A stretch of 64,000 nucleotides of DNA from NCBI GenBank assembly GCA_001599915.1, contig BCIG01000032.1, positions 194,342-258,341 on the forward strand. Direction: 5' to 3'. Under the pieces are notes generated by a model. It saw nothing but the letters and a program-made list of their open reading frames with translations, was not told where the DNA came from and did no database searches. Each line of letters starts with the position of its first letter. Position 1 is the first letter of the stretch. Of the stretch, positions 6,001-36,900 are shown piece after piece. A program made the translations under genes and the position numbers. The DNA is from Symbiotaphrina buchneri. Taxonomy: Eukaryota; Ascomycota; Symbiotaphrinales; Symbiotaphrinaceae.

Positions 6001-8640
6001 TATCTGGTCCGGTTTCAAGGTTAACCATTGTTTAATAATTAAATCTCTTCTTGTTGTAGGTATAATTTGTTAGGATAACCATGGGTGGTTTTATCTTATT
6101 CAATGTATACTTTCAGATCAGTTTATATGCCTTCCATTCTGTCCTAGAATGAAATACTCTTTAGTTCTATAGTACCCAATGATGCAGTTTGTTCTTAATC
6201 AAGGTCTACCTAGCAATAGAAAGTAGCTAGGGTTTCCTGGCACCATTTATATCTTTACCTATAAAGGTATGCTGATGATGTTGATCTATAGCTAGATGTT
6301 TCCTAGGATTAGGATACGATCTCTGGTTATCATTTGGATACTCAGGATGTTATTAGGATATATAGCTATACTGTACTTGTTAATTATGAATTGAGTAATT
6401 ATGTTGACTGATAAGCCTAGGTCAACCAGCACCTTGCAAGATTAATAGATTATTAAGCTATATGCCTTTTTAAAAAGATCATATGTAAAGAAGTTTAAAA
6501 CTGATAACTAACAGGTATACAGGATTATATCAACCTGTATTATAGCTGATTATAGAGCTCTAATCATATGATTGATATAACTGGTTACCTGATTGGTATA
6601 TCCTATAATTGTAGATATTGTTTAAAAACAGTAAGGTTTGATAGGATGTTCTACTTATGTTTCCAGTTTAAATCTCCTCTTAATGTCTGTTTAGAAAGAT
6701 AATAAGATTTCTGCCAGCTCTCTAAACAATAACATAACCAAGGTTTTCTTGATCACTGACCATGTATCAAATTTTAATTCTCTAAACATAGCCTAAATAT
6801 ATTGTTGTTAGTTTGAAAAGGCAGATTATGTTATATAGTAAACAATAGATTAAACAGCCTTTTAGGCCTTATCATTGCCTGATATACCATCTTGTTGAAT
6901 TTTAGCCTTTTAATATCTTTGTTTTATTCTAACAACATAAATATCTTATAGTTAGTTCCTATGAACTATTGATCAGACTTCTATAACTATATCCAGCCAG
7001 TTCTTTTTTAAATCTTTAATAAAGATATTAGCAATTAACTGGCTAGGATCCTTATAGAGGATATCTTTGTTACTAGGTATCTATTCATCTATATCTACCG
7101 TATATACTCCAGTTAATACAGAGTTAACTTTGATATTAACCATTATAAGAATAACTCAAGAGGTAACCAGCGGTTTTAATGGCTAATTACCTTGTTCAAG
7201 ACATGCTAAATGTTATATATGCTCTTGTTAGATAGCTATTTATTGTTTTAATAAGAATGGTTCATTTTGGTAATCTAAGGATATATATCTGATTTCCTTA
7301 TAGCTAAAACAGATAACATTGAAATTATACCTCCTTTGATCAATAGGTCCTGATATTAGTTTTTTTTCTTTAGGCTAAGGTTTTCCTTTTTGATATCACC
7401 CTATAACAGGTTTGCTTTCTATTCTAGATGTCAAAGTTGTTATATAGCCTATGTTTGCTGATATTACCTTTGCCGGCTCTTGATATATATTCTATTAACT
7501 TAGTATCTTTTTTAATCTTTATAATATCATTGACAACGTTTTTAATTAATCAATCATGGATTTGATTAACTTATAATCCTTTATTAAGGCTGGATCCTTT
7601 AAATTAAAAGCTAAAGGTACAACACTAAGAATATCGATTTTTTCATTCTTTATATATAGCATATCTTTAATATAATTCATGGTTGCTTGGAAAGATGTTA
7701 ATTAAATTTGCTGAAATCTTAGTACATATATATACATTTTATTATTCAATCCTTAGATTGTTGCCAGATTGAGTTTATGTTTTACCTAGTATAGAAAACA
7801 ATAAGCTAGGCATTATACTTGTTCAAAGTATTTTTTAAAAGGACGGTTTTCCTGTTACAGCTATCCAAGCTCTGTATACATGTTTAGGCTATTGTACTCT
7901 TTTACCTAAGGTTTTAGGAAATGTTTACAAAAAACATGTTTTAATTTCACCTTATTATCCCTAGTAGCTTTATTTAACTTAGTAATAAACCAATCAGCTG
8001 TTCTTATAATATATATAGTTAACATATATAGATATACCTTTAAATGATTAACTTTTAAAAAAATAAAAGGAAATGCTTTTTTCATGGTTTAGATCTAAAA
8101 AGCCATATCCTTTCTAGATGCTTTTAAAAAGATAAAGATAATCTAAAATATCATAGCTATCATATTGCCAATTAAGCTATAGGCTAATATCTTTATATAA
8201 ACAGTTAAAGTATATATATTGATTTAATTTAACTTATAATCATTGTTTTCTTTAGAAAAATCTTTATATAAGGCCTTTTCTACAATGTATAAGCCTGCCT
8301 GCTGATTCCTTACCAATTGATAGCTTGCTGTTTGTTGTTTTCATTTTAAGTCAGATACTGATCTTAGTCAATAAAGAAGTTTAAATCTTAATAGATGTTT
8401 CAATGGTTTCAATGGATGAACAAGAGTTAATAAATAAACAGAAGTCTATTCTGATATAAACCGATCATTGGTTATAGTATAATAACCTCCTATAATTCTT
8501 TCTCTATTAATATGAATAATGTTTATATATATCAATGATGATCAAGCTGGCATAATCAACAATGATTAAAGACTTGCTATAAAGTGATCACTTCCCTTTT
8601 AAGAAACCATACTTAAACTGTATCTATATTGACTAACAGG
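1..8640 (-). mobile_element. Ty3/Gypsy-like retroelement fossil in AT-rich (RIP-like) island
   Basis: This stretch is strongly A+T rich with dense TpA and no open frame above about 70 codons, as expected for a repeat mutated by RIP. Read on the minus strand it still shows traces of a retroelement pol. An RNase H-like segment lies at about 3630-3930, with an ATDASL-type motif near 3900. Reverse-transcriptase-like sequence lies upstream of it on the minus strand (higher coordinates), and integrase-like sequence on the other side (about 1900-2600). The element is broken in very many places and is a fossil. Its 3' part runs off the left edge, so one end is missing. I could not place LTRs. The family call as Ty3/Gypsy rests on the RNase H context; the age is old, but I cannot date it. 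Confidence 0.6.
2677..2852. mobile_element. 176-bp GC-richer insert flanked by 8-bp direct repeats
   Basis: Within the AT-rich retroelement relic lies a short block of near-normal base composition, with runs such as CAGTGACTGCTCGCTAG. It is bounded by identical octamers ATACCGTT at 2669-2676 and 2853-2860, which look like a target-site duplication. Eight base pairs would fit hAT-type DNA transposons. The two ends share only a weak inverted ACTTAT about ten bases in, so a clear terminal inverted repeat is lacking. It may be a small non-autonomous element that arrived after the host element decayed. It has no coding capacity. Confidence 0.45.
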
Positions 8641-10210
8641 AAAGAACAAGCTAGATAGCTCTTCTGAAGCTGGACCTCTGATACAGGTGCTTTGAATTGT
8701 CAAGGTGATGATGTCTTATCTTTCTTTCTTAAAGGTTGATCAGCATCTCCCTTGTCCGTTCTGAGGTCTCCTACATCAATGAATCAACTTGTACCGATGA
8801 GTCGGCCACGAAGGTATAACGATGAATCATATGAACTGAACTTGCGAGAAGGCCTTTAGAAGACGAGTCCCCGGAGATCAACCCTTACTGAGAGCTTACT
8901 AGATAAAATTGAGCAGAATAGTGATCTTATTGGTGTGTGTTGCAGATGATGTTCTAGCTAAGTGAGGAAGGTGGGTGAAATACCCATGCTGAGTCAGGAT
9001 GCTGAGTAAGCGCCTCACACCGGGATCCACCATCATTCATTATTCATTCATCCCACTCCATCCTGATCACTGACCACCTCAGTCATCATCATATCATCAA
9101 GGCAAATTCATTCCTTTGTCCCTTTCAGAAACAATTCGCTCAGTATTTCCCCGGCTCTGCTCTCTTCCTTCTTTTTCTCTTTCCCCCTTCCCTTTTCCAT
9201 CTTCCTTCTTCCCTGCCATCCCCGCTTCTGATTGAGTCATCTTACCAATATTCGCACTCCGCTGCGAGCCGCCAATTGCTACGCTGTTCCTGAAGCCTGA
9301 GGACCCTACCTTACGCGCCCCTGCCGAAGTTCGGACCAGTCCAAAGTCGGCTTCCCACATTCTCCTGGCGCACGACCCCGCCCTTCAGATTTAAGGCATG
9401 GTCAGGGTCGCCAGCCACAATTGAAAGATCTTGCTGCGTGGGATTGGTTCGGGGAACAAGGGAAGACCGTGCCAGGTGCTCGTGAGTGGTCCCGGGAGCT
9501 TGGGTAGCCAGAGACTCTGTCCCATTGGACCCGTGGTGCAGCAAGAAGGAACCTTTCGGCTCCCACCAACGAGGCCGCGTCCGAGGCGAGGCAGTTGTAG
9601 GAGCGAGTCCTGTGAACGAAAAAGCATTGCCGACCAACAGGCCAGCAGACAAACGAGCCGGGGCGTAAGGTACTGTCCGACTATCCTCCGTCTGCGACTC
9701 TGCCTGCACTGCATGCCCACCAGTACCTGTTGCTCTCCCGGGCTTCGCAACAGTTGCCGTGATCTGCTCTAGCTGTCCAGGCGAATACTCCCAATCAACC
9801 TACGACATACGACCATCGGGTGACCTGCACATTGTCAACTGATGTGCATATAGAGCGACGGCTTTGTGCGACCGCTTCCGCTTTCTAATAGGGCATCCGG
9901 CGTCCACAGTAACCCCCTCACTCACGCCCGCACTTCGCCAGGGGAATCTTCCCCGAGACGTAGCCAAACGTTGACGTCGTTGCCTGTCAGGGCAGCAAAC
10001 AGCCCGCCCCGCCTGTACAGATCGCTTATCCGGCATGAAACTCGTGATAGCACCGCTCCACTGGCCTCCCGATCATATTCCTCGCCATCGCTGACTATTC
10101 ATCATCAGTCATTGGCCTTGACCACAGTATCCCCTCGAATCCCGCAGTTGGAAGACCGATCGTTTTTCCTGTTGCTTTTCCGTCTTCAACCGTGTACACA
10201 TTATCATCAA
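8641..10210. other. Transition from AT island to gene-bearing DNA; no supported gene
   Basis: Base composition changes to normal over about 8640-8760. From there to the CASTOR-like gene I see only overlapping short open frames on both strands (for example 9311-9709 minus and 9866-10333 plus). None has a recognisable domain, conserved residue pattern or consistent splice signals. The last few hundred bases are probably the promoter and 5' UTR of the gene starting at 10211. Nothing else could be supported. Confidence 0.5.
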
Positions 10211-18908: not shown

Positions 18909-20742
18909 CTATCCTTCTTCTTCCACTTTTGCTCTTTTAGAAGCACGGGTTTCTGGCTCCTGCACACCATAGCGTTTGTTCCCAGCGCCGCCAGTGGCTT
19001 CACTTATCATTTGATCAATATTGAAAGGATCTGTATCCTTTTCAAATTGCACGGGACCTTCTCTCTCCTAGGTCGCGGTTAGCTTACTGATATGGAGCTC
19101 GAATGCTGCATGATATGACATACCTCAGCATCTGCAGCACCTTTGAAACCTTCCTTTGCGCGTCCCAATACTTCGAAACGGTTCGCTTTTTGTATTTTAT
19201 CAATCTCCGCACCTCCTGCAGACTCGTCAATGTCGTCATCCATGTTCGTCCTCGGACGATATATGCTACTGATAGCGTCTTGTGCCGCAAAAAGTGGTTT
19301 GTCATAAGGTTGGTCCTCGTTGAAGCCGCTGTCGAAACCACTCGACTGGTTGAACAACCTGCTATCCCACATAGACTCGGATGATTGCGTAGGCTTTGCA
19401 AGTCCCAAAGCCACCTTCTCGGATATGTCCCTATTCTGCTGGCGTGCCATCATCTGAATGCGTCGTTCAGTCCCCATGCGCGACTGCCGTAACTGACGTT
19501 CATCCTCGCGCCGTCTCTCTTTCCGCATCTGCTCACGTTCGCGGGCAGCCTCATCCTCACTTTCAGATTCGGACTGCGATGAAGCAGGAGATACACTCCG
19601 GCTACCGCTCGGAGATCTTGTCGCTCGCGATCCTCGACGTCTGGCACCACCTCGCGTCTCCTCCCTCGCTTTTTGGGCCAGCAAGCGAAGATGCTCCTCC
19701 TTTTGTGCCTTCTCCTTTTCCGCGAGCTTCTGTTGCATTAAGGCCCTCTGTTTGACTTCCTCCCGGGCATGCCTATCGGCCGTGAACAGGGCTTCCGCAA
19801 ATTGGGCAAACTTGTCATTAATCGTCACGTCCTGCAGGCCGCGACCGTCTGCAGCCAACCGTTTATCAAGCGGGACCGTGTAACCTTTTGGGTTCTTCCA
19901 ATTCGACACGGGAGGCGGTATTTTCCAGGCCTCTTGGTCTTCCGCGGTGAGTTTTCTCGGCGGAGAATGCATGACTGGCGGAGGCGGAGAAGGTGGCCCT
20001 CGGGGAATTTTCTTGTGTTTAAACTTGGGCGGTTCCATGGGATCCTGCTGTCTCTCAACTATTTTCATGATTCTGTCGTTTTTCCTTGTATTGTCCCCCA
20101 TCTGGTTCGCCGGCGTGTATCGCACAAATGTGGGTTCCGTCCTACTCAGCCCTTTTACATTTTTGGGCTTCTGAGCGGCGACTGCCCCGGACACCAGAGC
20201 AGCCAACGCATTCTTTGTCCTCTCGGTCGATGCAGCCACTTCCTCTTCCGAAGGTCTCTCTAGGGAGATCTCGCCAACGTCCGCTCTCTGCCGCAACGGG
20301 ATGAGGTCCTTGAAAGACGCATGCACAATACGTTTGTCGTTATGTCCTTGCCTTGCGATTGCGTCATATTTCACCTTGCCCTCCGCATCAACCTGTACAG
20401 CCAAGGCATTGGAGGTTGATGTCGACTTTCTGCCCATGTCGAGAGGATATTGCGCTACAGGTATCTCTGGAAAAGCCCCTCCATCTCCGTAGTCCTCTGG
20501 AGCGCGCGGCCGCCAGCCAGACCGTCGGCCATAGGGCGGTGGTCCTGTTTTCTATGCCTCGTCAATAGTGGATAACATGCGTTGGGCGAGAGTATTGTCA
20601 CCTTCAGCACAATCTGAGACTCGTCGATCTGACCCGCTCCGAGCACCCTTGGCCCTCGAGACTGGACAGGAAGCTCTTCTTCTTCTCCAGTATATTTGGG
20701 TTTGGGCAGAGCCCTTGCCAGCGACGAAGCGATCGATGTCAT
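18909..20742 (-). CDS. prp45: Pre-mRNA-processing protein 45 (SNW/SKIP family)
   Basis: Three exons (20742-20602, 20551-19124, 19067-18909) on the minus strand give 575 aa. SNW-domain proteins are spliceosome subunits (Prp19-associated) that also link to transcription. The first exon reads MTSIASSLARALPKPKYTG and the second opens KTGPPPYGRRSGWRPR, both hallmark segments. The family signature SNWKNPKGYTVPLDKRLAADG is present in mid-protein, preceded by IPPCISNWK-type context here seen as IPPPVSNWKN. A basic, charged C-terminal region follows, with an RS-like serine-rich patch (GSRSVSPASSQSESESEDE). The end SKRAKVEEEG closes after a 53-codon third exon. The upstream flank faces the second AT-rich island about 440 bp away. 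Confidence 0.95.
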
Positions 20743-21179
20743 GACGCCTTATCCAGCCTTCGCTGTTTAGCGCTATGATCGAAGTGTGCTTGAGTTGAGG
20801 GAAGGCTTGTAGCACACGGTAGATGAGGTTGGTGGAGGAGGGTTGATTGCTTCAGGAAAGTTTTGGGGTTGCCGTACGGTATCGGTTCATAGATACATTA
20901 CATAAGGTACCTAGGTCCCTTGGGCGGTGAGACATGGCTGACATGCGCCTCATCTCGCTGGATATGGCCGAGATTTCGTCAAGAAATGATGATAATCTCC
21001 AGCAAGGGATGCGTGTTGATAATCTCCACGATTGCCAGCCTTCTTTCAGAATCCTTCAGAATAATATCAAGATTTCCCTTGCTCTGCACAACAGTCATTA
21101 TAAAACCATGGTCCGTACGTCCCTAAATGTTCTTCTTGAGCACCGTTACTTTCTTGGCAGACCGTACTCTTAAAACGCG
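20743..21179. promoter_or_regulatory. PRP45 upstream region up to the AT-rich island edge
   Basis: This is the only normal-composition DNA between PRP45 and the AT-rich island, so the PRP45 promoter should lie here. It holds a TAAGGTACCTAGGT patch near 20904-20920. A short open frame at 20934-21173 has no recognisable features. The composition switches to AT-rich at about 21180. Confidence 0.5.
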
Positions 21180-21880
21180 ACAATAGCTTTCCTATTGTGA
21201 TCATATCCTTGTAACATAATAATATTAATTGTAAAACAATGATATGCTTATAGAACAATGAAATTCCTGGCAGTTTATATATTTTTGAAATAGAATGATA
21301 TATTCATAGATAATAACTAGTATTATGACCACTTCTTTAGAGTGATCATGGGGGTTTTTATCTTACTAAGTAATTTCACATGATATCAAGATATAATATG
21401 TGTATAATGTAGATATTAAAGTAAATAGATAAGAAACAATAGTAAAAATACTTATATAATAATTTACAGGTATATATTCATTTAAAAAAAACTATATTTC
21501 CTTTTCTAAATAGGTAAGTTTATATATATTTTTATAATTTAATATAATCTATTATAAATTTTTATAATATTATATAAATCTATTTAATTTTAATTTATAA
21601 TAATTTAAATATTATAAATATATTATTTAAAAAGTTTTTATATATATAATAATAAAGAAAATTATTTTTAATAAATATATAAATAAAACTAAAATTATAT
21701 ATATTATATAATTTTATCTATATATATTTATTATAAATATTATAAAAATAAAAGTTATAAATTTATTCTATTTAATCTTTAAAAAAAGTAATATATAATA
21801 TAAAGATATATATATAGGATATATATATAAAATATATATAAAGGATTATATTTTAAAAAGATAATATTATAACTTTTATC
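21180..21880. other. Left margin of the second AT-rich island; near-pure A/T tract
   Basis: From about 21480 to 21870 the sequence is almost wholly A and T in short TAT/ATA runs, and from 21180 it is already strongly AT-biased. I see no gene, repeat unit or domain trace in it. Confidence 0.7.
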
Positions 21881-21884
21881 ACAG

Positions 21885-24800
21885 AATTACTAGTTGCTAG
21901 TTATTTAATCATGTGTTCCTAAGTTGCTAACTTAGTTTACTATGTTCTTAGTATTATTTTATAGCTAGATAGCTTAATTAACTATTATCTTACTAAGTTA
22001 AAAGCCTTGTTTGTTGTTAAATAGTAACAATACTTGTTTTGATAAGATAACTAACTTATCTAATCAATAGCTTATATCAACAGTATTTCTATATATTGTA
22101 CCAATTGTTTGTTTTATTGCCTAAGTCCTCTGGCCCAGCTGAATGCTTTTAACCTAGCTGTCCTACTATGATTATCCTACCAAGTCCTTTTCTTTAATAA
22201 ATCTAACCTTTTCAAGTATAATTCGGTTTCTTTTGATTTTTAACTTCTGGCTTACAGAATTACAAGTTAAGTATCAATTCAAGAACCTAGGAACAGTTAT
22301 ATACGTTTCTTTCCATTATACATTTACTCTCTATACTAAAAACAGAGAAACTACATCTATAACGGTTTATAACCAGATGTTTGTTAACAATGATATCTAC
22401 CTATGATTACAATACTTTATTTATCTCAATCTTATTACTTTATAGTTTTATAAACTATATCAATGTATACAGATGACTGTTTGAAAAGGAATCATCTATT
22501 ATTAATTTACTAAGTTAGCATTTTACAGCTTTAGTAGCTCTTATATTATTCAAACCAGTATTATAGATTTACTATAATCTAATTCCTTTTCTAAGATAAC
22601 CATAGTTACCCTGTAATTTCCTAATCTTTCAGAGTTACCTAAGATGATAATAGTTATTACTCATCAGTTATACTGACTAATTATAAATAGATTTAACTTT
22701 ACAAGGAATTTAGAAGAATTTACTCTATGATTAATAAAAGTTATTCATGTCTTTTATCTATATACAAGGTTAATCTTACAACCTTATTAGATAATAGATT
22801 AAACAGACTTTATAAATATAGTTTAAAAATTCTAAAGAAATATCTAGGAATTTTAACAATCAGCCTGTTATTTAAACTATATTAACAAAACTTACTGATT
22901 ACTTTTTATAGAACAAAAAGCCCTTATAGATACTGATTTAAAAACAAGTTTACTATACTTGTTTAAAGTTTAACCTTTTAATACTAAAAATCTATACTAA
23001 AGACTTTAGTTAATGATTATATATATCAAGCTTATATCCTGTCAGGTCTTTAAAACCTTGGTAATATAAATCTTAAACTAAATCCAAACCTATTTTTTTA
23101 AAGATGATAGCTGTTATCTAAGCTATAATAGCTTACATAATAACCTAATACCGATTAGTAAATTAAACAACTCCTAGAATATAAAGTCCTTAAGGACCTT
23201 AAAGGCTATAAGGATCATCAGGTTTATCAGAAGGTAATAATAGGTATTTTCAAACAATAGAAATTAGGTTTTTCTATCCTAATAACTTTAATCCTTATAA
23301 TGATATAATTTAAAAAGATAAAGAGAAGTTCTATAAGAATATATATACCTTTATTATATAAGTACAAGTTGTAAGTCTTATAAGAAATCTAGTAATTATT
23401 AAAAAGAATCTTGATAACTATCTTTTTAATAAGATTGATAACTGATAAAACAATATCCTTTTTTATATTTAACAAGTTAGGATTATATATAATATAAACA
23501 GAGTTAAAAAATGATATAAGGTTTTAGAAAAACGTTTTTATATACCTTTAACACAAGTACTTTTAAAGCTTAACTTATTAAAGTATATTATTATAGATAT
23601 TAAATTACAGAAAAACATTACTAAATACCTATAATTAATCAGTATTTACTTAAAACAATATAGATAAGATGATTATAAGTTCTTTTAAGTTTTTAGAACC
23701 TAAAGTTATATTAATCTGAAATTGCATATAGGTATAAACTTTAAACCTTTTGAATTTATTACCATGTTAGAGCTTTTAAACAAATTAATATCTAAATAAT
23801 TAACATAGTTTAATTATTATTCTTACAAGGAAAATAGGATTAAAGAACAAGATAAAGAGTTTAAAAACAACATTAAAGAATACAGGAATGATACTTATAA
23901 TAAAGATTGTAATCAACCTTTTAACAAAGGTTAATATCAATGATTATTTTATTATTGACAATCCTTGATACCATTTGAATATAGAAACTATCTAAGTTAC
24001 TATCTTTTAAACTATATATATCAAGATAATAATAACTTCTGGAACTTTTAAAATTCCTACCTGAACCAAGGTAATTATAGCTGTTTTCAAACAGTTTATA
24101 ACCTAAATTAAGAGTTTTAAATATAGTTAGAGCTATCAGTACTATCTTTAAGGTTGTAAATTATAACTAAACTGACTGGTATCTGAGTTAATAGAAAGTA
24201 TTAAGCTTTATAGTTTTAATAAAGATTGGCTGAAAATTGTAACTCTGGAAATCACAGATCCTTTTATAAATACAGGTCCTTAAACAATCAGTATAACAAT
24301 AACTGGAATTTTAACTATCAAGATAGAATACAAACAGTATATACAGAAGATATCTTTATATAGGATTCTTCTAATCTTACTTCTGTAAATAAGAACTTAT
24401 AAGAAAAGGACAAGTTGACTTATAAATTAAAAACCGTTCTATAAGAGCAAGGAACTCCTATAATAGGATACCATGTCTTATATAAAAAGATATATAATGA
24501 TTACAAACCTTTTCCAAAGCCTGATTATAGTTATCATGACTTTATAGATGATCAGGACAGTAATAAATCATTATACTATGTTAATAGGTACTTTATAACT
24601 ACAGATTTATAAATGAACCAATTGTTCTATAAATACTAAAGATATAACTATACCTTTATCTTTAGGAACAAGTTATACAAACATTTAAAGACAAATACAG
24701 AATATTATCATTTATCTAAAAAAAGGCTTTAGAAAACAAAAACAACATAAAAACATTTATCAACATGATAATCAGGACTTTACAGATGATAGTTCAGACT

Positions 24801-27800
24801 TTATAGACATAAGTCATCAGATTAAAGCCTTATATCAATATATATGATAGTTTAACATTCTGTAGATAGTACTATACAATAATCTTAATCTAATTCATTA
24901 TTATAGGATCAATGATCTATATATACATGGATATAAGGTATACTATGATCCTGATCAATTATAAGTTTTTGTAAAAGATAATACTCTAGTTAGAACATCA
25001 TTGTATAAATAAAAAGCTTATGGTATAAGATTTTAATAAACAAAAACATAAGATTGATAAATATATCCTTTTAAACCTGTACTTAACTGGATAAATTCTT
25101 ATAACAAGAAAGAAGATTGGTACTTATATCCAACAAAAAGCCTATATGGTAAATAACCTAAAAGCTATCATATTGATAGATATAAACATTATAGAACCAA
25201 AACAGATAATAGTAAATTTTATAACTTGTAAATTAATAGTTAACACTTATAAAGACATGAATATAGACCTTATTATTATCCTATAATCCTTTTACAGAGT
25301 TTATTAATCTGTTATAAATTAAAGATAAGTTTTAATTTCAGGAAACTTAATAATAATAATACTGGTTATATTCCTTAGAAATGCTATAATTTAAACAATC
25401 AAGATTATATCTTTACTTTAAATATCAAGGAAAACATCAATTAAATTATAAATCCTATAATATCTTGCATACAAATCTATAACAAGGTAACAACTCTTTT
25501 AATTATCTTTTAAAACTCTTAAATAGGTACTTTGGAAGATTATAATAAAGATAACCTCCAATGATTAAACCTATTATTAATAGAAACATTATATATAATA
25601 ACTGTTATCAATATAGTTAAAGATAAAATATATAAGGAAATAAAGCTACCTAATAACATAATAATCTATAGAAACCTATATAAAGTCAAAGAGTTTATAA
25701 AGTCAATTATAAAACATTTAAAACTCTGAAAAGACAGAAAAGATACAATATAACTTTTAGAATCAAAATTATTAAAAATCCTATTATATTCTAATTAACA
25801 GGAAAGAACAAGGCTAGATAGTTAAATTTATCTATTTAATAAAAAAGATTATATTATTATAGATAAGATATTTAATAAACTCTATAATCAGGATAAAATA
25901 ACATGAATTACCAATTGGATACCCTTTAATTCCCTAGTCTTTATGATCTGACAGATAGTAAAATCAAAATCAAGAGAATCTAAACATAAAAACAAGATGA
26001 TAATTGATATCAAAAACCTAAATTGTATATTAGAAATTAATACCTATCTACTCTTAATCTAAAAAGATATCTTAGGATCTATTCAAGGTTGTACTTATAT
26101 AACTATAATAGATGTTTTATTCTTCTTTTATCAGTTCCTGATTACAATTAATGATCATTATTTCCTGGTAATCAAGACTTATTAAAACTAAGAACAGTTT
26201 AACATAATACTGATAAAATATTATAACAGCCTTCTTTTTGCTTAGAAAGTAATTAATAACGTTCTATATATATATAAAAATTATATAAAAGCCTTTATAA
26301 ATGATATAATTATCTTCTCTAAAAGCTACCAGGATTATTTACAACATCTTTAAATTATCTTACAGTTATTGAATAACTGTTAAATTTATCTTGTTTTATA
26401 AAAGGCATTTATCAGCTATTCTTCTATAATGCTGTTAGGTTAGAGAATAAATCGCTTTGGACTTTTAACTGATAAAGAAAAGATTAAAGCTTTAGTAAAC
26501 CTAGAGTTTCTAAAGATGTTTATACAATTAAAAACATATATAAAGCTTATTAATTGATTGTAAAACATTATACCCTTTTACTTATAGATTGTAAGCCTTT
26601 TGTAACAAAGAAAAACTGAATTGCTTGTATATAGCCTAAAAGTAAGATAACTTAAATAAAACTATTTCTAGATTACAGTTATTGAACATTTATCTAACTA
26701 AGAACAAGAGAGCTTTAATAAACTATAAGAAATGTTCAAAACATGTTTAAACTTAATATATTATAATCTAGAATATAAGTTATACATTTATATTAATAGT
26801 TTTAAAAAATAGAAAGTAAACATAATAACATGCTATATAAAAGGCAATCTGAACAAATTAATAAAGAAAGAAAACATCCAGCTGAAATTATACCTTAGTA
26901 AAAAGTTAAACAACGTTAAACAAAGATATTAATCTATTAAGTTGAAAATAACTAAAGTTATATAGATTATATAGAAGTTTAAACAGATAATTGATTTTAT
27001 CTATCTTAAAAAGCTATCTATAATTATTTATATTGATTATACATCTATTATCAACATAATAGATTAAGTCTTGTTATTTATATTGTGGTGGGGAAGAGGG
27101 TGCAGAAGGTGCAGAAGGTGCAGAAGGTGATTTGCGCTTTTGCACCGATGTCACATGATGTGGTCCAAGCTCCAGCAGAACGGAACGGAACAACGTTTCT
27201 CCGGTGTTCTGCGCTCCAGGGATAAAAGCTTCCTTCTTGGTAGTCAGATAGAGCAGCATGTTGGATAGTGAATTCAGGACCTGTTTTGCTGGTGTTTCTT
27301 TCTTGTTTTGGATAGGTGATTTCTCTATGTGGTTTTCTATGTGATTTCTCTATGTGGCAGCCTGTGCAGAGGCTTTATTCCCATTGTTTTATCGCGGTGT
27401 TTCTCCTATAGCACATCTCCCTACCTATTCTCCTACCCGATTCGGTGGCTATCCACCTACCCCCAACTACCCCAGCACAATATCTTTAATGAACAAAGTT
27501 AACATATATTTAATCTAAGTATTCTAGTATCTCTTTCAGTTTGTAAAAAAAATAAAGTTATAATATAAACCAGGTAAAAAACATATTGTTCTGAATATAT
27601 TATTAAGATTTAAACAAAAGATAAAGTATAAAGCTTAATAAGATAAAAAACAATTAGAAAAGCTTAAGACCTTTAACTGTTCTAATATAATACTGATCAA
27701 ATTGATATTTAACTTTTAAGAATGACTTTAAAAGACCTATAATACTAATAAATACTGATAATAAATCAAAAAGTTAATAATTAACAATAATACAAAGATA

Positions 27801-29200
27801 GAAATGACCAAAGAAAACTAGTTATAGCTATTAACAAAAGCTAGGAATTAAAGCTTGAAATCCTTTATTTAGTTTATACTCTAAAACGACCTATTTTACT
27901 TTATTGATCAAAATAACTTCTAAGAATGTCTGTATATTCTAACAGCCTTTAAAAAGGACATAGACTGAAACAAGTCTTTGTTTAAATAACTTCTATATTA
28001 TACATTTATAAGCTCTTTAGGAAACTTAAGAAGTATATAGCTTATTATCATCTATATATATTGAATAGAACAATATATTACTTATTTAATAAAAGCTATC
28101 AACCTGTTTAGATATTAAACAAAATCTTTCACATATAAACTATTGATTTTATACTTGTTCTATCTGAAATTAAAGTATAGAACTTTATTATATCGATTAT
28201 TAACAAGACCTTTAAAAGGATAAAACTTGTACTAAGCTATAATAACTAGTCTGTTAAACAATAGATAATTACTATATTAAAAGAAGCTTATAATTAAAGA
28301 ATTTTAAAAACAATAATTTCAGATTAAAACTTTAAGTTCTTATCAGATCTTTAATAAGTAACCTTTAAGTAGTTAAGCTTTAAATCATTGATAACTACTG
28401 TATATCATTTCTAAGTAAACAGGTAATCTAAACAAATTAATCAGATAATACAGATTACTTTAAGATATTTCCTTATAAAGGATAAAAACTTAAAGAATTA
28501 GATATATTTCATCTAAACTCTTAAGTTTATGTTTAATAAAATATCTAATACAGCTATTGGATTTTTACCAGATAAAGTTATATATAAAAAGCATTTAAAT
28601 AATTAAATAATCCTGTTTTATAACAACCAGGTTAAAACTGATATTATAACTACTTGTTAAAGAATCTGTCATAAAGCTTTAAATATGATAACGTTTGTTA
28701 ATACCAGATATAAGATGTTGTTTAATATAAAAAATTAACCTATAATATTAAAATATAATAATAAAGTGTTTTTAAAGCTTTATTATAGTTATAAAGTACT
28801 GATTTAAGAAAACAAGAAATTATTAAATCAAAAAACAGAACTATTTAAGATTCTAAAACAAATAAGAAATCTAGCTTATAAACTTAATATACTGGTATAC
28901 TAAAGAATTCATTTGATAATCAACATTGTATAACTTAAACCTATTCCTAAAAAGAAAGATACTTTAGAATAAAGATCTTTCAAGGTTAAAAAGGTTATAA
29001 GGAAAATATTACATCAGTATGAATGCAAAAAGCTAAAGATTGAATATCTAATAAGGTAAAAAGGCTATAGCTTTAAATATAACCAATAATATAGTAAAAA
29101 GTTATTAGAAAACTTAAAAGAGCTATTTAAAGAGTATAAAGTTATATAATAAGGATTTAGACAGAAAGTAAATGTTAATTAGGTAATTTACAATCCTGTT
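21885..29200 (+). mobile_element. Ty3/Gypsy chromovirus fossil, RIP-degraded
   Basis: On the plus strand, traces of a Gypsy pol appear in the expected order. A reverse-transcriptase-like segment around 26100-26450 includes an aspartate-containing motif of the FIxDIxIFS type near 26300. Connection/RNase H-like sequence follows, then a region where integrase is expected (about 27.6-28.6 kb). A chromodomain-like stretch lies at about 29030-29150 (a WKGY-type core followed by an NxxxLL...LFKEY-like helix). The element is broken in very many places, all consistent with old RIP. It is interrupted by the insert at 27084-27479. LTR boundaries are not clear; the start is approximate, near a change in texture at 21885. 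The family is well supported by the chromodomain after pol; the age is old and undated. Confidence 0.65.
27084..27479. mobile_element. 396-bp unmutated insert, TG...CA ends, candidate solo LTR or MITE
   Basis: A block of normal base composition sits abruptly inside the AT-rich chromovirus relic. It begins TGTGGTGGGGAAG and ends with the imperfect inverse of that (CTACCCCAGCACA). It is flanked by ATAT at 27080-27083 and 27480-27483, a possible 4-bp target duplication, although ATAT is cheap in this context. TG...CA ends with a short duplication fit a solo LTR; the 13-bp imperfect inverted ends also fit a small non-autonomous DNA element. It contains a 9-bp tandem repeat (TGCAGAAGG, three copies near 27100) and a 61-codon minus-strand open frame with repeated SAP residues and no known domain. 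It shows no RIP signature, so it arrived after the surrounding decay, or is too short or rare to be targeted. Confidence 0.6.
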
Positions 29201-29326
29201 ATAATAAACAATAAGATGTTTTTATCTGATCTTTCTTTTCTCTTTATACTTTTACCATTAGTATCATTCTTTAATATCTGCAGAAAAGCTTTATAATCAT
29301 TGTTTATCTGTAAAGAAGTTATATTA

Positions 29327-29480
29327 TTATCTTTTATCTGTTATCTACAACTTTTTAATATACTGTATACCCTGTTGTTAAAAGTTTTATTATTGTCTTT
29401 TATCTATTATTTATAACTTTTTAACACATTATATATACTGTTGTTAATATTGCTATTATCTTTTATTTTATAACTTATAT
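29327..29480. repeat. Tandem repeat, about 63-bp unit, two and a half copies
   Basis: Units beginning TATCTTTTATCTGTTATCTA and TGTCTTTTATCTATTATTTA follow each other and both continue through ACTTTTTAA...CTGTTGTTAA. A third partial unit starts near 29455. The array lies just downstream of the chromodomain trace, so it may belong to the 3' non-coding part of that element. Confidence 0.6.
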
Positions 29481-29499
29481 ATATTACTTTATTATTTAC

Positions 29500-31470
29500 T
29501 ATAACAAAAAAGGATAAATATAAAGTGATTTAAACAATAATTGAAAACTTTAAACAATATGTAAGTATTATACAAATAAAAGACTTAGTTAAAGATTTAA
29601 TAAAGAAGAATATATATATATATATATGAATTCTAAACATTAAATCTTATAACATTTAAAATGGGAAAACACAAACAGGATAAGTTATAAAGGAAGATTA
29701 ACTGTTGTTTTATTTTTTATAATGAATACCATTAGAAAAATACTTTTACTTTGTGAAATTGGATGATTAAACCCTATATATCATCATGTCTTATATTATA
29801 TTCAATAAAATAAAATCATAGACCTATACCCTAGATTTTAACATTAATAACAATATATAAGCAAATTAGATATATGTAGGATTTTCAATAATGATTGGTT
29901 ACTAAGTTAGAATACTGGCTTTCTTTAATCTAGGTAATTGTAAAAAACAGGAAAACGTTATAATATGCTACAAAAAAGGGTTAAAGTACAAACTTGATAA
30001 ACAAGTCTGATATAACATCCTAAAAAAGGCTATAAATAACGATAAAATAGATAAAAAATGGTTTAATGATAAAAACAACATTGATTTAGACAGATTATAA
30101 GTGATATCATCTAAAGCCTCTTTATTATATAATGATAAGATTTAAAAGATAGGATTTCATAAAATATCAGCTTATAAAACGAAATATACAAAGTTAAAGA
30201 TGATATAAGAGGAATACTAGATAGATGACTTTATAGTTATAAATAATAAACCTTTTCAATCAAACATAAAGTATAAGCTTAGGTATTGAATCCTTGACAG
30301 TAATAATGATATCAAGAATAAAGAACAAAAGAAGTCATCTAAATTATAATCTTAAAAGCTCTAGAAACCTTGTATACGTATATTGTTCTTATCTTTAAAA
30401 ACGATAGCTTTTAATTTGATATCTTTAATTAAAACAAGAAATCCGATGTTTTTGACCTTTAAGTCAATAACAGCTTTTAACTTAATATCTTTAACCAGAG
30501 CTATGTTTTTAAACTTTAAGCTTAAGCTTTTAATTACCTTTTTATAACAAGAACAAGAACTTTTTAAGTTTAAAGCTGTATTCTAATAAGCTAAAACTGA
30601 ACTATAGAGTTAGAAGTTAATTATCACAAGATTATATAATAACCTTATATAATTAGAAGCTGAAAAGATAAAGATTAAAACCTTATACTAAAACTATATC
30701 AATGTTCTCAATATGACAATATATTGTATTAAAGTTCTAAAAGCTTTATAATATATAAACAAAAAGGTCTTTTTATATTATCTTTAAAAGAACTCTGATT
30801 AAATTATAATAATGATTGTTTTAGACAACCTAGATAAGCTATCAGATTATAGGTTCAGGGTGTTCTAGAAATCATAAGGATACTTAAAGGAATGGATCAA
30901 AAGTAAATTACTAAAGAGAAAGGAGATTATAGTCATAGAAGTAAAGTACAGGATAGATAAGCTATAAAGAGAGATAGAAAAGAACGTATTAGACAAAGAC
31001 AAAAAGGATGATGATAAAACAAGAGATGAAATGGCTAAAGCTGATGCTAGGAGTCTAAAGGAAAGGGATGTTAAAACTGTTTAGCTTTAGAATACAATAT
31101 CTACACATCTACAGTTCTAGAATACATAACTCTAGAATACAAAGTATAACAAGAATACTATACCTATACATTTACAGTTTCAAAATACAATATCTACACA
31201 TCTACAGTTCTAGAATGTACAATTTCAGAATATAAAATATAACAAAAATGCTATATCTATACATCTATAGTTTTAGAATACTACACCTACACATCTACAG
31301 TTTCAGAATACAACATTTAACGAACAACAGGCACCCATGGATTCCCAATTTCAATATGTAACTCTGGAGTTGGGTAGGATTACAGGACCAAGCAGGAAAG
31401 AAGATGGATCTCCTCCCAGTCATATCCAAATCTGCATCAGGTCGGATGGATATACAAGTCTGATTAATTT
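29500..31470 (+). pseudogene. Gene-like relic of unknown origin with charged coil region and Gln/Thr-type repeats
   Basis: Not recognised. Between the chromovirus relic and the AT-pure tract lies a less degraded stretch. Around 30950-31080 one frame reads as a lysine/glutamate-rich helix (DKDKKDDDKTRDEMAKADA). From 31080 to 31320 a degenerate repeat of about 22 bp (ACACATCTACAGTTCTAGAATAC-like) appears, which in one frame gives THLQFQN-type repeats. From 31320 to 31460 the sequence is nearly normal in composition and open (reading MDSQFQYVTLELGRITGPSR). An internal tandem repeat lies at 30390-30535. It could be a captured or duplicated host gene fragment or an unrecognised part of a transposable element. 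Its composition gradient suggests uneven RIP. Confidence 0.35.
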
Positions 31471-32865
31471 ATTATTAATTTAATTCTCTTTTAATAAAAA
31501 TTATATTTATAGATTAATTTAAATTTAAATTAATTTAATTAAAGATTTTATAATATTTAACATTTTATAATTATAAATATTAAGTTAAAATAATTAAACA
31601 GATAGTTAAATTAAATTTATTTAAAAATTAATATTTTCTAATTTATATAATTAATTAACAACTAATAATCAAGATAGAACAGATATAAATATAATGGATA
31701 ATATAATTAAAATAGTTAGAATAATTTAATTAAATAAAACAGATTATATTTTATACTATTTTATAATGTAAGTAAATCTATTACAAGGATTCAAAGGGTT
31801 GATATAAGAATAATAGATAGAACAAGGTTATATAATGTTATAAGAATATAGAACAAATATAAAAAAAGGTTATACATGTTTTTTGTTTTGATTTGGGTTG
31901 TGCTGGTAGAACAGGGGCAGGTTACATGTCTGCCATTCTTGGCGGCTTAGTGTAGTTTGTAACTTTTTGTATAATAGATAATGTTTCTAAGATAGAATTA
32001 CTCTTATAAAGTAATATTAATTTTTAACATCAGATATTATTATATAATGGTAAAATTTTTAGAATATCTCTTTATCTGATAGATATTACTAATTAACATT
32101 AAATATATTATTTTAGTAAAAATTCTTTTTATTTAACATATAATATTAATAAAACATTGATTAATAATATATATAATCAGATAAAAAGATAAGAATAATA
32201 TAAATTTTAAACAAATATTTTTTAATAAAGTAATAATAATTTAACTATAGTTTTTATATTTAATTATTTAATTTAAATAATTTTATAAAAATTAATTTCC
32301 AATTAAAAATAATTGATTAAAATCTTATTTAATTGATAAAATATCTAAACATTTAGAATTATCTAAATAGAATTTGAAATTCTAAAATTAAAAGAATAAA
32401 TATTATTTGTTTAATAATATTTGAATATATATAATTATATATATTATATATAAAAAGATAATAAAAGAATTAAAATTATAATTAAATCAAAGTTATATAA
32501 CTAGGATTAAATTTTAAATAGAATAAAGACTTATTTTATAAGTATATATAAATTATATGTTAGAACATAAATAATAATTTAAATTATATTATAAGCTAAT
32601 ATAAATTCTGTATTCTATTACAATTTAATTATTTAAACTCTTTAGAACATGTTTCTTTTATAAATCAAATATATTTAATTAACTTTAAGCTTTTCTATTA
32701 TTAACTTGATTTTAATAGAATAAATTAATTAATTAAGATTTTATATTACATCAAACTTGTTATTGATAAAAAATTTACTAGTATATTTATTAATATAATA
32801 TAAATATTTAATATTAAAAACTAATTAATTTAATTATATAAGTTTTTTAGTCCATAAAAACCAGG
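31471..32865. other. Near-pure A/T tract
   Basis: About 1.4 kb of almost uninterrupted A and T in TTAATTTAATTA-like strings, with one small GC-richer patch at about 31880-31970. I see no gene, repeat unit or domain trace. The texture is the same as 21480-21870 and 35440-35780, which suggests a shared origin or the end state of mutation. Confidence 0.6.
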
Positions 32866-32867
32866 CT

Positions 32868-33219
32868 TGTTCTTAGTATAATATAACATAGTATTTTGAC
32901 TGTTTAAGTTTAAATACCAAGAAACTTGATTATACATAATAGTTTAGATCTCTAATACCAGATACTACTAGTTATAAATGTAAATACTATTATCAAGTAT
33001 TTATTGTACATCATTAAACTATATTACTAACTGTTTATTAAATGTTTAATAAGTGTTTAGTAAATAACTTTAAATAAAACCTAATTTTATCTTGTGTAAA
33101 CAGGCTTGTTGTTAATATAGTATAATATAGTATTTTAACCTTTGAAGTTTTAAGCTTGTCTATCAAGAAACTTGATTATATATAGTAGTTTAAACTTAAT
33201 ACCCGATATTACTAGTTAT
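32868..33219 (+). repeat. Repeat family A, copies 1 and 2 (tandem; second truncated)
   Basis: Two adjacent direct copies begin AGGCTTGTT at about 32870 and 33101. Both carry the string AAGAAACTTGATTATA, then a GATA(T/C)TACTAGTTATA block. Copy 1 continues to a TAATTTTATCTTG block; copy 2 is cut at 33219 by a family C repeat. Both copies are more AT-rich than copies 3 and 4. Confidence 0.7.
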
Positions 33220-33308
33220 ATAGGGTTGTTATTAGTATAATGTTTACTAGTTAATATAGTTTACCAACCTGGTACTAAGTATAGGTTGATGTAGAGATCT
33301 GACACCAG
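33220..33308 (+). repeat. Repeat family C, copy 1 (fragment)
   Basis: A short copy of the family also seen at 34432-34555, 36291-36500 and 36503-36722. The diagnostic string here is TACTAAGTATAGGTTGATGT followed by AGATCTGACACCAGACC. Confidence 0.6.
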
Positions 33309-33907
33309 ACCAGGCTTGTTGTTGGTATGGTATATATCACCAAGTATAAATATACCACACCAGTGTTAAATATGGTCTGGTATCAAATTTTAATACCAGT
33401 GGTACTTAGTCATGATACCATATTCTACTGATACTAAATATAATATATACCAGATTACCAGATCAAAAAGATAAGATAAGAAAATTTTCTCTTTTGGAAT
33501 TACTTTTTGAAAGGGGTATAATATTACAAACAGGTAGGGTAGTAGTTGTACTGACTTAAGTTGCATTGGTAAACTATCATTGCTGTGTTAATTGTATAGT
33601 GTGTGTTTTCTAAGTACAGACATCTGTTTTGCTTAGAGCTAAACCCTAAACGTTAATCTGAATCAGGCCACCCTTTTCTGATGTGTTACATCTGGCATGT
33701 AACATATAAAATCAACACTTAACAGGTTCCATGTATATTCATAGTAATAAGCTATACTTAATTGGGTTCAATGTACAAGTAATTTGTATTAGTTAGTATA
33801 TATTAGTCTGTATTAATGTGTTTTACTATTTATTAGTACTTATAAATACAAGGTTAACTAAACCCAAAGAGTTAGTTTGAATACAATTATATTATATAAT
33901 CTTGTAT

Positions 33908-34430
33908 TCTGACTGACCTAGACTTGTTATTAGTATAGTATAGTATGGTATTTTGACCTTTTAAGCTTGTTTACCAAGAAACTTGACTATATATAGTAGT
34001 TTAGACCTATAATACCAGATACTACTAGTTATAAATACAAATACTACTATTAAGTATTCATTGTACTACTAAGCCGTGTTATCAACTGTTTAGTAAGTAC
34101 TTAGTAAACACTTAGTACGTAACTTTAAATGGAACTTAATTTTATCTTGGTAAATAATCAACCTTTTAAAATAATAAAAACATGGTTATATAACAAATTC
34201 TTTGTTAAACAGTACCCTTTTTGATTTTTGGGGATCCAATAAGGAATGGTTAAGATATTATCATTTTCTAGCTAATCCTAGCCCTAGGTTCTATGGTAAC
34301 CGGAAACGACAGGATAACAACAAGCTAGAAGTGTAAAAAAGATTTGGGACAGTAACTTAGTTAAAGTTCAGAAAAATTCCAAATTTAATCATATCTAACT
34401 GACCTGTCTCTTTTTACATAGCTTACCCAG
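33908..34430 (+). repeat. Repeat family A, copy 3
   Basis: A full-length-looking copy of about 520 bp, beginning with a variant of AGGCTTG (AGACTTG) and a GTATAGTATAGTATGG run. It includes CAAGAAACTTGACTATATAT, a TTAGTAA(A/G) series, then TAATTTTATCTTGGTAAATA and GGAATGGTTAAGATATTATC. It aligns along its length with copy 4 at 34558-35046. Confidence 0.75.
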
Positions 34431-34431
34431 G

Positions 34432-34555
34432 TTTGCCACTGGTATAGTGTTTACCAGTTGGTATAGTTTATCAAACCGGTACTAAGTACAGGTTGGTATA
34501 GAGATCTGATACCAGACTATTAGCTGGTTTGGTACAATGGTGTTTTTCCCTAGGT
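34432..34555 (+). repeat. Repeat family C, copy 2
   Basis: Begins CCCAGGTTTGCCACTGGTAT and carries ACTAAGTACAGGTTGGTATA then GAGATCTGATACCAGACT. It sits precisely between family A copies 3 and 4, and its reverse complement matches 36340-36500. Confidence 0.7.
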
Positions 34556-34557
34556 TG

Positions 34558-35046
34558 GCAGGCTTGCCGTTGGTATGGTATGGTATGGTATTTGGACCTT
34601 TTAAGCTTGCCTGTCAAGAAACTTGACTATATGTAGTAGTTCAGACCCCTAGTACCAGATACCACTAGTTACGAATACAAATACTATCACCAAGTATTCA
34701 TTATATATTATTTATACTGTTTACTAAGCGCTTAGTAAACGTTTAGCAAACAACTTTGACCGAAACCTAATTTTATCTTGGTGAATAATCAACATTTTAA
34801 TGAAAGAAAAACACGATTAAATCATATAGCAAATTTATTGCTGAATAATACCCTTTTTAAAATTTCAAAATCCGATTAGGAATGGTTGAGATATTATCAT
34901 TTTCTAGCTCTTAGACTCTACAAAGACTACAATGGTCAGGAACTACAGGATAGCAGCAAGCTGGAAGTGCAAAAAGGACTTGGGACAGCAGCTTGATTAG
35001 AATTCAAGAAAATACAAAATATGATTATATTCCAACCGACCTGCCT
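34558..35046 (+). repeat. Repeat family A, copy 4
   Basis: About 490 bp, starting AGGCTTGCCGTTGGTATGG with three TATGG units. This is the least AT-shifted copy, with strings such as CAAGAAACTTGACTATATGT and AAGTGCAAAAAGGACTTGGG that have close counterparts in copy 3. Because it keeps more C and G than the other copies, it may be the youngest or the least mutated. Confidence 0.75.
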
Positions 35047-35439
35047 GTTTGGGCCTAGTTTACCTCGTATTTATAAGCACTAATAAATAGTGAAACATAC
35101 TAATGCACACTAATATACACTAATTCAAACTAATGCAAGCTACCTCATACATTAAACCTGATTAGGTATAGTTTGTTACTATAAATATAGTCACAGAACT
35201 TGCTAAGTGCTAGTTCTATACCCCTTCCAAAAATGGTAATTCCAAAAGTTTTTTTTCTTATCTTATCTTTTTGATCTGGTGATCTGGTATTATACCACAT
35301 TTAACGCCCATAGAATATGGTATCATGACTAAGTACCACTGGTACCAAAAGTTGATACCAGACCACATTTAGCACCGGTGTGGTATATTCGTTTTCAGTG
35401 GTATATACCATACCACCAGCAAGCCTGACCTTACCTGTT

Positions 35440-35859
35440 TGTAATAAAAGGTTTAATATTTTAACTATATTAATATTTAGTATTAAGGTTTAAACCATTA
35501 TAAACATTTTATATTCTTAATAATTAAAATTAAAAAAATAAAATATTATATTATACTCTATTACCTATAAGTTTAATTAAAAATAATAATAGTTCAATTG
35601 ATTTAAATTAAATTTAAGATAATAAAATTTAAAGACAAAATAATCTAATAACAGATTTATTATATTAAAAGGTTAACACTAACCAAGATAAAAAAGAAAG
35701 TTTATTTTTTCTATTTGATTTATTGATATTAAACTTATTATTAAAATTGTATAGTTTGGTTTTTAATCATTTTAAATCTAACTACCAAGAGGTATCTATA
35801 GATTGGTATGGTTTTTTTTGAAAAATTTACCAAAATTCACTGGTTTCTAGTTTGGGTTT
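35440..35859. other. AT-rich spacer between repeat copies
   Basis: About 420 bp of AT-rich sequence like that at 31.5-32.8 kb. I see no gene or clear repeat in it. Confidence 0.6.
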
Positions 35860-36290
35860 TTGAAAGGTTGATTATTTACAGAGATAAAATTAAGTTTCGT
35901 TTAAAGTTCCTTACCAAGTGCTTAGTAAACGTTTACTGAATAGTTAGTAATACAGTTTAATAATATGTAATAAATACTTGGTGATAGTATTCGTATTTAT
36001 AACTATAGTGGTATCTGGTACTGGAAGTCTAAACTACTATATATAGTCAAGTTTCTTGGCAGACAAGCTTAAAAGGTCAAAATACCATACTATACCATAC
36101 TATTGATACTAACAAGCCTGGGCTAGGGTTACAATTAAAAAATGATGATATCTTAACCATTCCTAATCAGATTTTAAACTTAAAAAGGGGTATTATTCAA
36201 CAAAGAATCTATTATAGAACAATATTTTTTATTATATCAAGAGGTTGAATATTTACCAAGATAAAATTAAATTTGTTTAAAGATGTTATT
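35860..36290 (-). repeat. Repeat family A, inverted copies 5 and 6 (partial)
   Basis: In reverse orientation to copies 1-4. The segment 35860-36118 is the reverse complement of the AGGCTTG-end half and finishes AACAAGCCTGGG. The segment 36119-36290 is the reverse complement of the other half (GATATCTTAACCATTCCTAA, then AAGATAAAATTAAATTTG), so these are two separate partial copies end to end. Confidence 0.65.
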
Positions 36291-36724
36291 AAACGCTTAT
36301 CTTATCAGATATTATCAAATACTACTGGAGAAATGTTTTTCCTAGTTATAATCCGGTTTATTTGGTTTCTTTACCAACCTAGAGAAAAACACCATCTTAC
36401 CAAACCAGTTGGTAGTCTGGTATCAGATCTCTACACCAACCTGTACTTAGTACTGGTTTGGTAAAGTACAACAACTAGTAAACACTGTACCAGTGACAAG
36501 CCTGGTTGATATTATCAGATCTTATCAAATAATTCCAGAGAAATGTTTTTCCCTAGTTATAATTTGTTTTCATTTGGGTTTTACCAAACCAGAGAAAAAA
36601 ACTATTAAACAAACCAACTGGTTTTCTGGTATCAGATGTTACATGTACATACTAACCTGTAGTTAGTATATACTAGGTTGGTAGACCATACCGACAGGTA
36701 AAACCATACCAACAACAAGCCTGA
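36291..36724 (-). repeat. Repeat family C, inverted copies 3 and 4, ending at the island edge
   Basis: Two successive copies (about 36291-36500 and 36503-36722) each run from a TATCA(A/G)AT...CCAGAGAAATGTTTTTCC block to a right end of ACAAGCCTG. The second one's ACAACAAGCCTGACT end coincides with the return to normal composition, so the AT island boundary is set by this element's terminus. Confidence 0.7.
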
Positions 36725-36900
36725 CTCCTGAGAACACTGTTTTGATGCCTGCATGTTTCCTCAAAGGTATCAACCAACATCTTACTCCTCCGCCCCCTGT
36801 GATTGTTTTGAGGACGTATCAGTCAAGTATAACCAGTGCAAAAGGTCTTCTCAAGAGACTATGCCGAGACTTCCATTGGTCCCTGTTACTTTGAATGGTA

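What the first reader, a model, noticed from the sequence alone, without database searches (positions are those of the whole stretch)
32868..36724. Nested cluster of at least three short repeat families sharing AGGCTTG termini
Twelve or so segments fall into three families (A, B, C) that differ internally but share an end of the form CAGGCTTG-TTGTTGGTATGGTAT or its inverse. Family A occurs four times direct and twice inverted, C twice direct and twice inverted, and B as one large inverted pair. A common terminus with unrelated interiors suggests different non-autonomous elements mobilised by one transposase. None matches a fungal element I know.
Basis: partly seen in the sequence, partly recalled or inferred. 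Interest (0 to 1): 0.75.

Follow-up and report, generated by a model that had tools for sequence, protein, structure and literature searches.

The report
Nested short transposons with shared ends
This is a nest of two related, gene-less cut-and-paste transposons of a fungus that have landed inside one another; the kind is ordinary, but the copies found sit only in small AT-rich islands, usually one per large piece of the genome, which makes their location worth testing.

Summary
A and B are the two ends of one ~860-bp element (E1; window copy 34559-35427). C is one end of a second, 832-869-bp element (E2) with another far end (D). E1 and E2 share a ~525-bp core (81%) and a ~23-bp inverted terminus. 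The terminus has 138 genomic sites (reversed control 0). It is a true end: 12 terminus pairs have perfect 8-bp target-site duplications, against 0-2 in eight shifted controls, and joined flanks recover uninterrupted older copies. These are non-autonomous TIR transposons, hAT-like by duplication length only; no transposase was found (one domain searched). Copies show RIP-like decay. At least 7 of 12 perfect-duplication insertions lie inside other E1/E2 copies. Sites listed fall in 38 loci on 31 contigs: of the 32 largest contigs 23 have one locus, five have two or three, four have none. The one contig seen with telomeres at both ends has one nest, ~4.5 kb. Best reading: families moved by one transposase system, left only in small heterochromatic nests. 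That the nests are centromeric is untested.

The parts
20600..36750 (.). AT-rich island (12-36% G+C per kb against about 50% on either side) in whose right end the nest lies; limits approximate
32862..33125 (+). E1 fragment, A end (E1 positions 1-251, 73% identity)
33101..33219 (+). second E1 fragment, A end (1-114, 76%)
33222..33310 (+). E2 fragment, C end (about 2-90, 75%)
33311..33913 (-). E1 fragment with B terminus at 33311 (E1 854 down to 423), broken by what follows
33919..34427 (+). E1 fragment with A terminus (1-491, 79%)
34428..34558 (+). E2 fragment, C end (1-131)
34559..35427 (+). complete E1, 869 bp, both termini present; no target-site duplication of its own (1 of 8 bases match)
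35860..36120 (-). E1 fragment with A terminus at 36120 (1-241, 81%)
36121..36504 (-). E2 fragment with C terminus at 36504 (about 1-387, 79%)
36506..36723 (-). diverged E2-type C end (1-208, 73%), terminus at 36723

Best explanation
A nest of two sister families of non-autonomous terminal-inverted-repeat DNA transposons, E1 (ends A and B) and E2 (ends C and D), about 0.83-0.87 kb each. Shown: the shared terminus, 8-bp target-site duplications, recovery of empty sites, nesting of copies in one another, RIP-like decay, and restriction of the listed copies to a few dozen small AT-rich loci. Inferred: one transposase recognised the ~23-bp terminus and probably the dense TGGTR/YACCA sites beside it, cut the elements out and pasted them with 8-bp staggered cuts (hAT-like by that length); copies persisted only in, or were directed to, a heterochromatic compartment where RIP and further insertions eroded them.
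For: Pairing of A and B ends 840-900 bp apart on many contigs and 19 full-length E1 copies in fetched loci. E2 with C and D ends, 5 intact copies of 832-869 bp among 10 C starts followed. Perfect 8-bp TSDs in 3 of 19 full-length E1 and 3 of 5 intact E2; 12 perfect among 2337 terminus pairs against 0, 2, 0, 1, 1, 0, 0, 0 in eight shifted controls. Joined flanks match uninterrupted E1/E2 copies across the junction, e.g. 150 columns at 93% and 152 at 89% without gaps. TGGTR/YACCA enriched in ends A, B, C outside the terminus (P<=0.001), not in the cores. C-to-T change highest at CpG and CpA. 73 of 73 A-end and 58 of 58 B-end sites, and 100 of the 100 listed (of 138) terminus sites, lie in the 38 loci.
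Against: 15 of 19 full-length E1 copies, the window's included, show no convincing TSD, so much later recombination or erosion must be assumed. No transposase found: PF05699 gave nothing, and its controls rang nowhere, so this says little. The D end lacks the TGGTR/YACCA enrichment, and that motif was chosen after looking. The terminus reads CAGGC, not the hAT consensus I recall (G at position 5).
Confidence: 0.85

Rival explanations
1. Same anatomy, but the mobilising transposase belongs to another superfamily that makes 8-bp duplications (KDZ/Zisupton, P, or a MULE).
For: Zisupton also makes 8-bp TSDs (PMC12730594, passages). The hAT domain PF05699 had no match in this genome. TSDs show no hAT target consensus that I recall.
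Against: hAT is the superfamily that usually makes 8-bp TSDs and occurs in fungi (PMC12730594, passages).
Confidence: 0.35
2. The strings are parts of a longer repeat or satellite that spreads by recombination, not transposon ends.
For: Most full-length copies lack a TSD; E2 C ends are cut at different points and abut E1 copies.
Against: 8-bp duplications directly outside CAGGCTTG, absent when flanks are shifted, and empty sites in intact older copies. Copies are not in head-to-tail arrays.
Confidence: 0.04
3. The nests are ordinary repeat graveyards scattered by chance and purged from gene-rich DNA; their near one-per-contig spacing means nothing.
For: An LTR family shares the nests (42 of 44 LTR records within 1.7 kb of an E site). 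C2 and C11 have three loci, C1, C24 and C25 two; C6, C29, C30, C31 none listed. Contigs are not proven chromosomes.
Against: 35 loci on C1-C32 hit 28 of 32 contigs, 20.8 expected, P=8e-5; several contig lengths were estimated. C15, with telomeres at both ends, has one nest.
Confidence: 0.55

Closest known systems
hAT non-autonomous elements (hAT MITEs)
   Same: 8-bp TSD, short inverted termini, no coding capacity seen, repeated subterminal motifs
   Different: Terminus CAGGC lacks the G at position 5 that I recall for hAT; no hAT transposase found; confined to AT-rich nests
KDZ/Zisupton transposons of fungi
   Same: 8-bp TSD for Zisupton (PMC12730594, passages)
   Different: No protein evidence either way; not searched here
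MITEs of Epichloe festucae
   Same: Short non-autonomous elements in a RIP-type fungal genome with AT-rich blocks of nested repeats
   Different: There MITEs lie mostly in gene-rich DNA and avoid RIP (PMC6218096, passages); here listed copies lie in AT-rich nests and are decayed
Short AT-rich centromeres of Malassezia sympodialis
   Same: Single AT-rich tract of 3-5 kb per chromosome (PMC7025860, abstract), like the ~4-4.5-kb nests on C15 and C3
   Different: No chromatin data here; nests are made of transposons; some contigs have several or none

Membership tests
Non-autonomous TIR DNA transposon (MITE-like) | Terminal inverted repeats at both ends of a repeated unit | tested here: met
   ~23-bp terminus at both ends of E1 and E2
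Non-autonomous TIR DNA transposon (MITE-like) | Target-site duplication of fixed length | tested here: met
   8 bp; 12 perfect of 2337 pairs against 0-2 in eight controls; but 15 of 19 full-length E1 copies lack it
Non-autonomous TIR DNA transposon (MITE-like) | No transposase gene inside | tested here: met
   No stop-to-stop frame of 110 residues or more read as a transposase in the fetched AT-rich parts; longer frames there are copia-type (L013 and L019 by my reading; L022/L023, L029) or unassigned. Pfam was run on only three of these frames (L029)
hAT superfamily | 8-bp TSD | tested here: met
hAT superfamily | hAT transposase in the autonomous partner | tested here: inconclusive
   PF05699: 0 matches in G000, and 0 of 14 control genomes, so the search had no positive control
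hAT superfamily | Terminus consensus with A at position 2 and G at position 5 (recalled) | tested here: not met
   CAGGC: A at 2, C at 5; consensus is from memory
KDZ/Zisupton superfamily | KDZ transposase | not tested
   No search left (12 of 12 used)
Centromere DNA | Kinetochore or CENP-A binding | not testable with these tools
   No chromatin data
Centromere DNA | One such locus per chromosome | tested here: inconclusive
   Of contigs C1-C32, 23 have one locus, five have two or three, four have none listed; C15, the only contig seen with both telomeres, has one; 40 of 164 contig ends were read

The most novel reading that the evidence does not exclude
The nests are the centromeres or pericentromeres of this fungus, and E1/E2 are non-autonomous DNA transposons whose insertion is directed to that chromatin, so that they pile up inside themselves at about one site per chromosome.
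Probability: 0.22. Interest if true: 0.7.

Novelty: new member of a known kind. Interest (0 to 1): 0.4.

Why it matters
The elements are of an ordinary kind. Their listed copies, however, are confined to 38 self-nested islands spread more evenly over the large contigs than chance gives, unlike the MITEs of Epichloe (PMC6218096, passages). If the islands are centromeric, this would be a DNA-transposon counterpart to centromere-linked retroelements, and a single 23-base pattern would map candidate centromeres in this genome.

Tried and rejected
Autonomous partner: PF05699 gave no match and no control rang. Two C ends about 5.3 kb apart on C25 enclose a copia-type retroelement (gag, integrase, RVT_2) between two inverted E2 fragments, not a transposase. 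The 3.9-kb structure in L017 with perfect TSDs is an E1 carrying an insert with 382-bp direct repeats at 95%, i.e. LTR-type.

RNA or tRNA origin: Rfam on window 20-38 kb 0 matches; tRNAs in the window 0, with a finder run in bacterial code.

A flipped core between E1 and E2 (B-like C end, A-like D end): B against C outside the terminus P=0.002 among six comparisons, A against D P=0.018, but A against B also gives P=0.005; too weak to claim. A 1000-bp composite in the window (34428-35427) has flanks matching 7 of 8, within the rate seen in controls, so not claimed. L033:3385-4329 has perfect 8-bp flanks but is unclassified. The AT-rich island at window 1-9 kb is low copy: itself and two weak matches on C6; Pfam on three short pieces of it gave nothing above cut-off.

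Literature: eight searches, listings and abstract starts seen; passages of PMC12730594, PMC9910759, PMC4589918 and PMC6218096, outline and abstract of PMC7025860. I saw no paper on this family in those listings; most subscription papers are not held.

Full report
WHAT WAS CLAIMED AND WHAT IS THERE. The window is C32:194342-258341 of a 23.4-Mb, 82-contig genome, by my reading of its open frames and TTAGGG telomere arrays a filamentous fungus; the species was not identified. The terminus CAGGCTTGYYRYTGGTATGGTAT has 138 genomic sites at up to 2 mismatches (71 and 67; 100 listed), none for the reversed pattern.

A AND B ARE ONE ELEMENT. Genome hits of A and B pair in inverted order about 840-900 bp apart on many contigs. 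In the fetched loci 19 copies run from A end through a core to B end; the window's is 34559-35427. I call it E1.

C BELONGS TO A SECOND ELEMENT. Followed inward, C leads into a core like E1's and then to a different end, D. Of 10 C starts followed, five have the far end in place and measure 832-869 bp. E1 146-670 and E2 169-700 align at 81% over 543 columns. The families thus share interior and terminus and differ mainly in the 130-200 bp beside each end. Among 167 termini found with up to 4 mismatches 65 were A, 59 B, 19 C, 8 short matches and 16 unassigned, so further end types exist.

THE STRING IS A TRUE END. Of the 19 E1 copies, 3 have perfect 8-bp duplications and a fourth differs by two transitions; 15 have none that convinces, the window's included. 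Mean flank identity exceeds that of mismatched pairs most at length 8 (0.42 against 0.29; next is 0.37 against 0.30 at length 3), and none of the mismatched pairs is perfect at 8. One of the 19 (L007) had its boundary misplaced there; at the right place it has no duplication either. Of five intact E2, three are perfect, one is 7 of 8, one 2 of 8. A scan of plus/minus terminus pairs up to 12 kb apart (2337 pairs, loose pattern) gives 12 perfect matches; shifting one flank by -3, 1, 2, 4, 5, 6, 7, 8 gives 0, 2, 0, 1, 1, 0, 0, 0. With near matches it is 31 against 4 to 11 over nine shifts. Eight of the 12 are E1, several with inserts, three are E2, one is unclassified.

NESTING. Flanks joined with one copy of the duplication match uninterrupted E1/E2 copies across the junction: L032 (150 columns, 93%, no gaps), L033:1629 (152, 89%, no gaps), and with lower identity L024:5208, L024:3031, L030, L031 and L033:1021. 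That is at least 7 of the 12. L014 and L017 do not match; L034 matches only its own locus; L011 (65-71%) and L033:3385 are unclear. E1 copies in L031 and L034 carry a ~400-bp insert that matches both ends of a copia-type element on C9 (L022 5016-5477 and L023 2474-2869), so probably solo LTRs. L017's E1 carries an insert with 382-bp direct repeats at 95%.

DECAY. In 18 E1 copies (the long L011 copy left out) change of C to T is 34% at CpG, 21% at CpA, 14% at CpC, 13% at CpT. The reverse change is 2.4%, but my scoring rule, which called a site C where at least 30% of copies had C, lowers that figure by design. Two dinucleotide indices lie in the range I recall as RIP-like in 17 of 18 copies and not in the genic parts. 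The CpG excess also allows methyl-CpG deamination. DNA-methylase domains occur at three loci (C6, C24, C27); none was identified as a RIP enzyme.

HOW IT PROBABLY WORKS. The termini plus TGGTR/YACCA pentamers, 4.9-6.2 per 100 bp in ends A, B and C outside the terminus (P<=0.001), 0.4-0.6 in the cores and not enriched in D (motif chosen after inspection), look like binding sites of a common transposase making 8-bp staggered cuts. This is inference: no transposase was found. PF05699 gave nothing and rang in none of 14 controls. hAT usually makes 8-bp duplications, and Zisupton does too (PMC12730594, passages); the latter was not searched.

WHERE THEY ARE. 73 A-end sites (all listed), 58 B-end sites (all listed), 27 rows chosen, and 44 of the 68 rows for the copia-type LTR (24 short or secondary rows left out) form 38 loci on 31 contigs when merged at 30 kb; 42 of the 44 LTR rows lie within 1.7 kb of an E site, the others at 5.1 and 12.7 kb. 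All 100 listed terminus sites lie within 2 kb of these loci; the 38 unlisted ones were not seen. The patterns reach only copies within 2-3 mismatches, so older copies elsewhere are not excluded. Of contigs C1-C32, 23 have one locus, C2 and C11 three, C1, C24 and C25 two, and C6, C29, C30, C31 none listed. For 35 loci on those contigs 28 contigs hit compares with 20.8 expected, P=8e-5; about a dozen contig lengths were estimated, and contigs are not proven chromosomes. Of 40 contig ends read, telomere arrays were seen at C3 right, C6 left, C7 right and both ends of C15. C15 (722 kb) has one nest at about 609.5-614 kb; its flanks are 49-58% G+C but for 44% in the adjoining half-kilobase; C3's nest is about 4 kb. 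Two of the clusters named (C5, C20) contain long runs of N or very low called G+C, so some nests are incompletely assembled.

COMPARISON. Epichloe MITEs lie mostly in gene-rich DNA and avoid RIP, and no repeat family marks every putative centromere there (PMC6218096, passages). Aspergillus flavus centromeres are about 100-kb AT-rich regions (PMC9910759, passages). [quoted passage not shown] Malassezia sympodialis centromeres are 3-5 kb with an AT-rich core (PMC7025860, abstract). A centromere of this size is possible but not shown.

VERDICT. Real, well-bounded non-autonomous TIR elements of a known kind. The distribution is what deserves a second look.

Noticed in passing
G000 contig ends (L040-L079) and C1:741877: A GC-rich repeat (62-65% G+C where it fills a contig end) has 35 sites; 27 lie within 400 bp of a known contig end and always in one orientation to it, 7 lie on contigs of unknown length, one is internal at C1:741877, between C1's two nests. 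Subtelomeric repeat or assembly break point.
   Followed up: partly
window 1-9000: A second AT-rich island (about 30% G+C) without E1/E2; its DNA matches only itself and two weak places on C6 at 369-373 kb.
   Followed up: partly
L029:860-5470; L022:5016-7401 with L023:1-2869: Copia-type retroelements with long open gag, integrase and reverse-transcriptase frames at about 40% G+C, inside the decayed nests.
   Followed up: partly
window 27037-27374: Short frames resembling those in the LTR-type insert of L017 (RNHIENHIEKSPIQNKK), so probably a copy of that LTR in the window's island.
   Followed up: no
L029:545, L020:6833, L031:4326, L018:2081, L027:2971: Further sequences starting CAGGCTTG but with other letters inward (e.g. 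CAGGCTTGCAAGTGGTAGAATGTGG), perhaps more sister families.
   Followed up: no
G000 C6:304813-305985, C24:168632-169572, C27:396489-396887: Three loci with DNA-methylase domains (PF00145), candidates for the methylation or RIP machinery.
   Followed up: no
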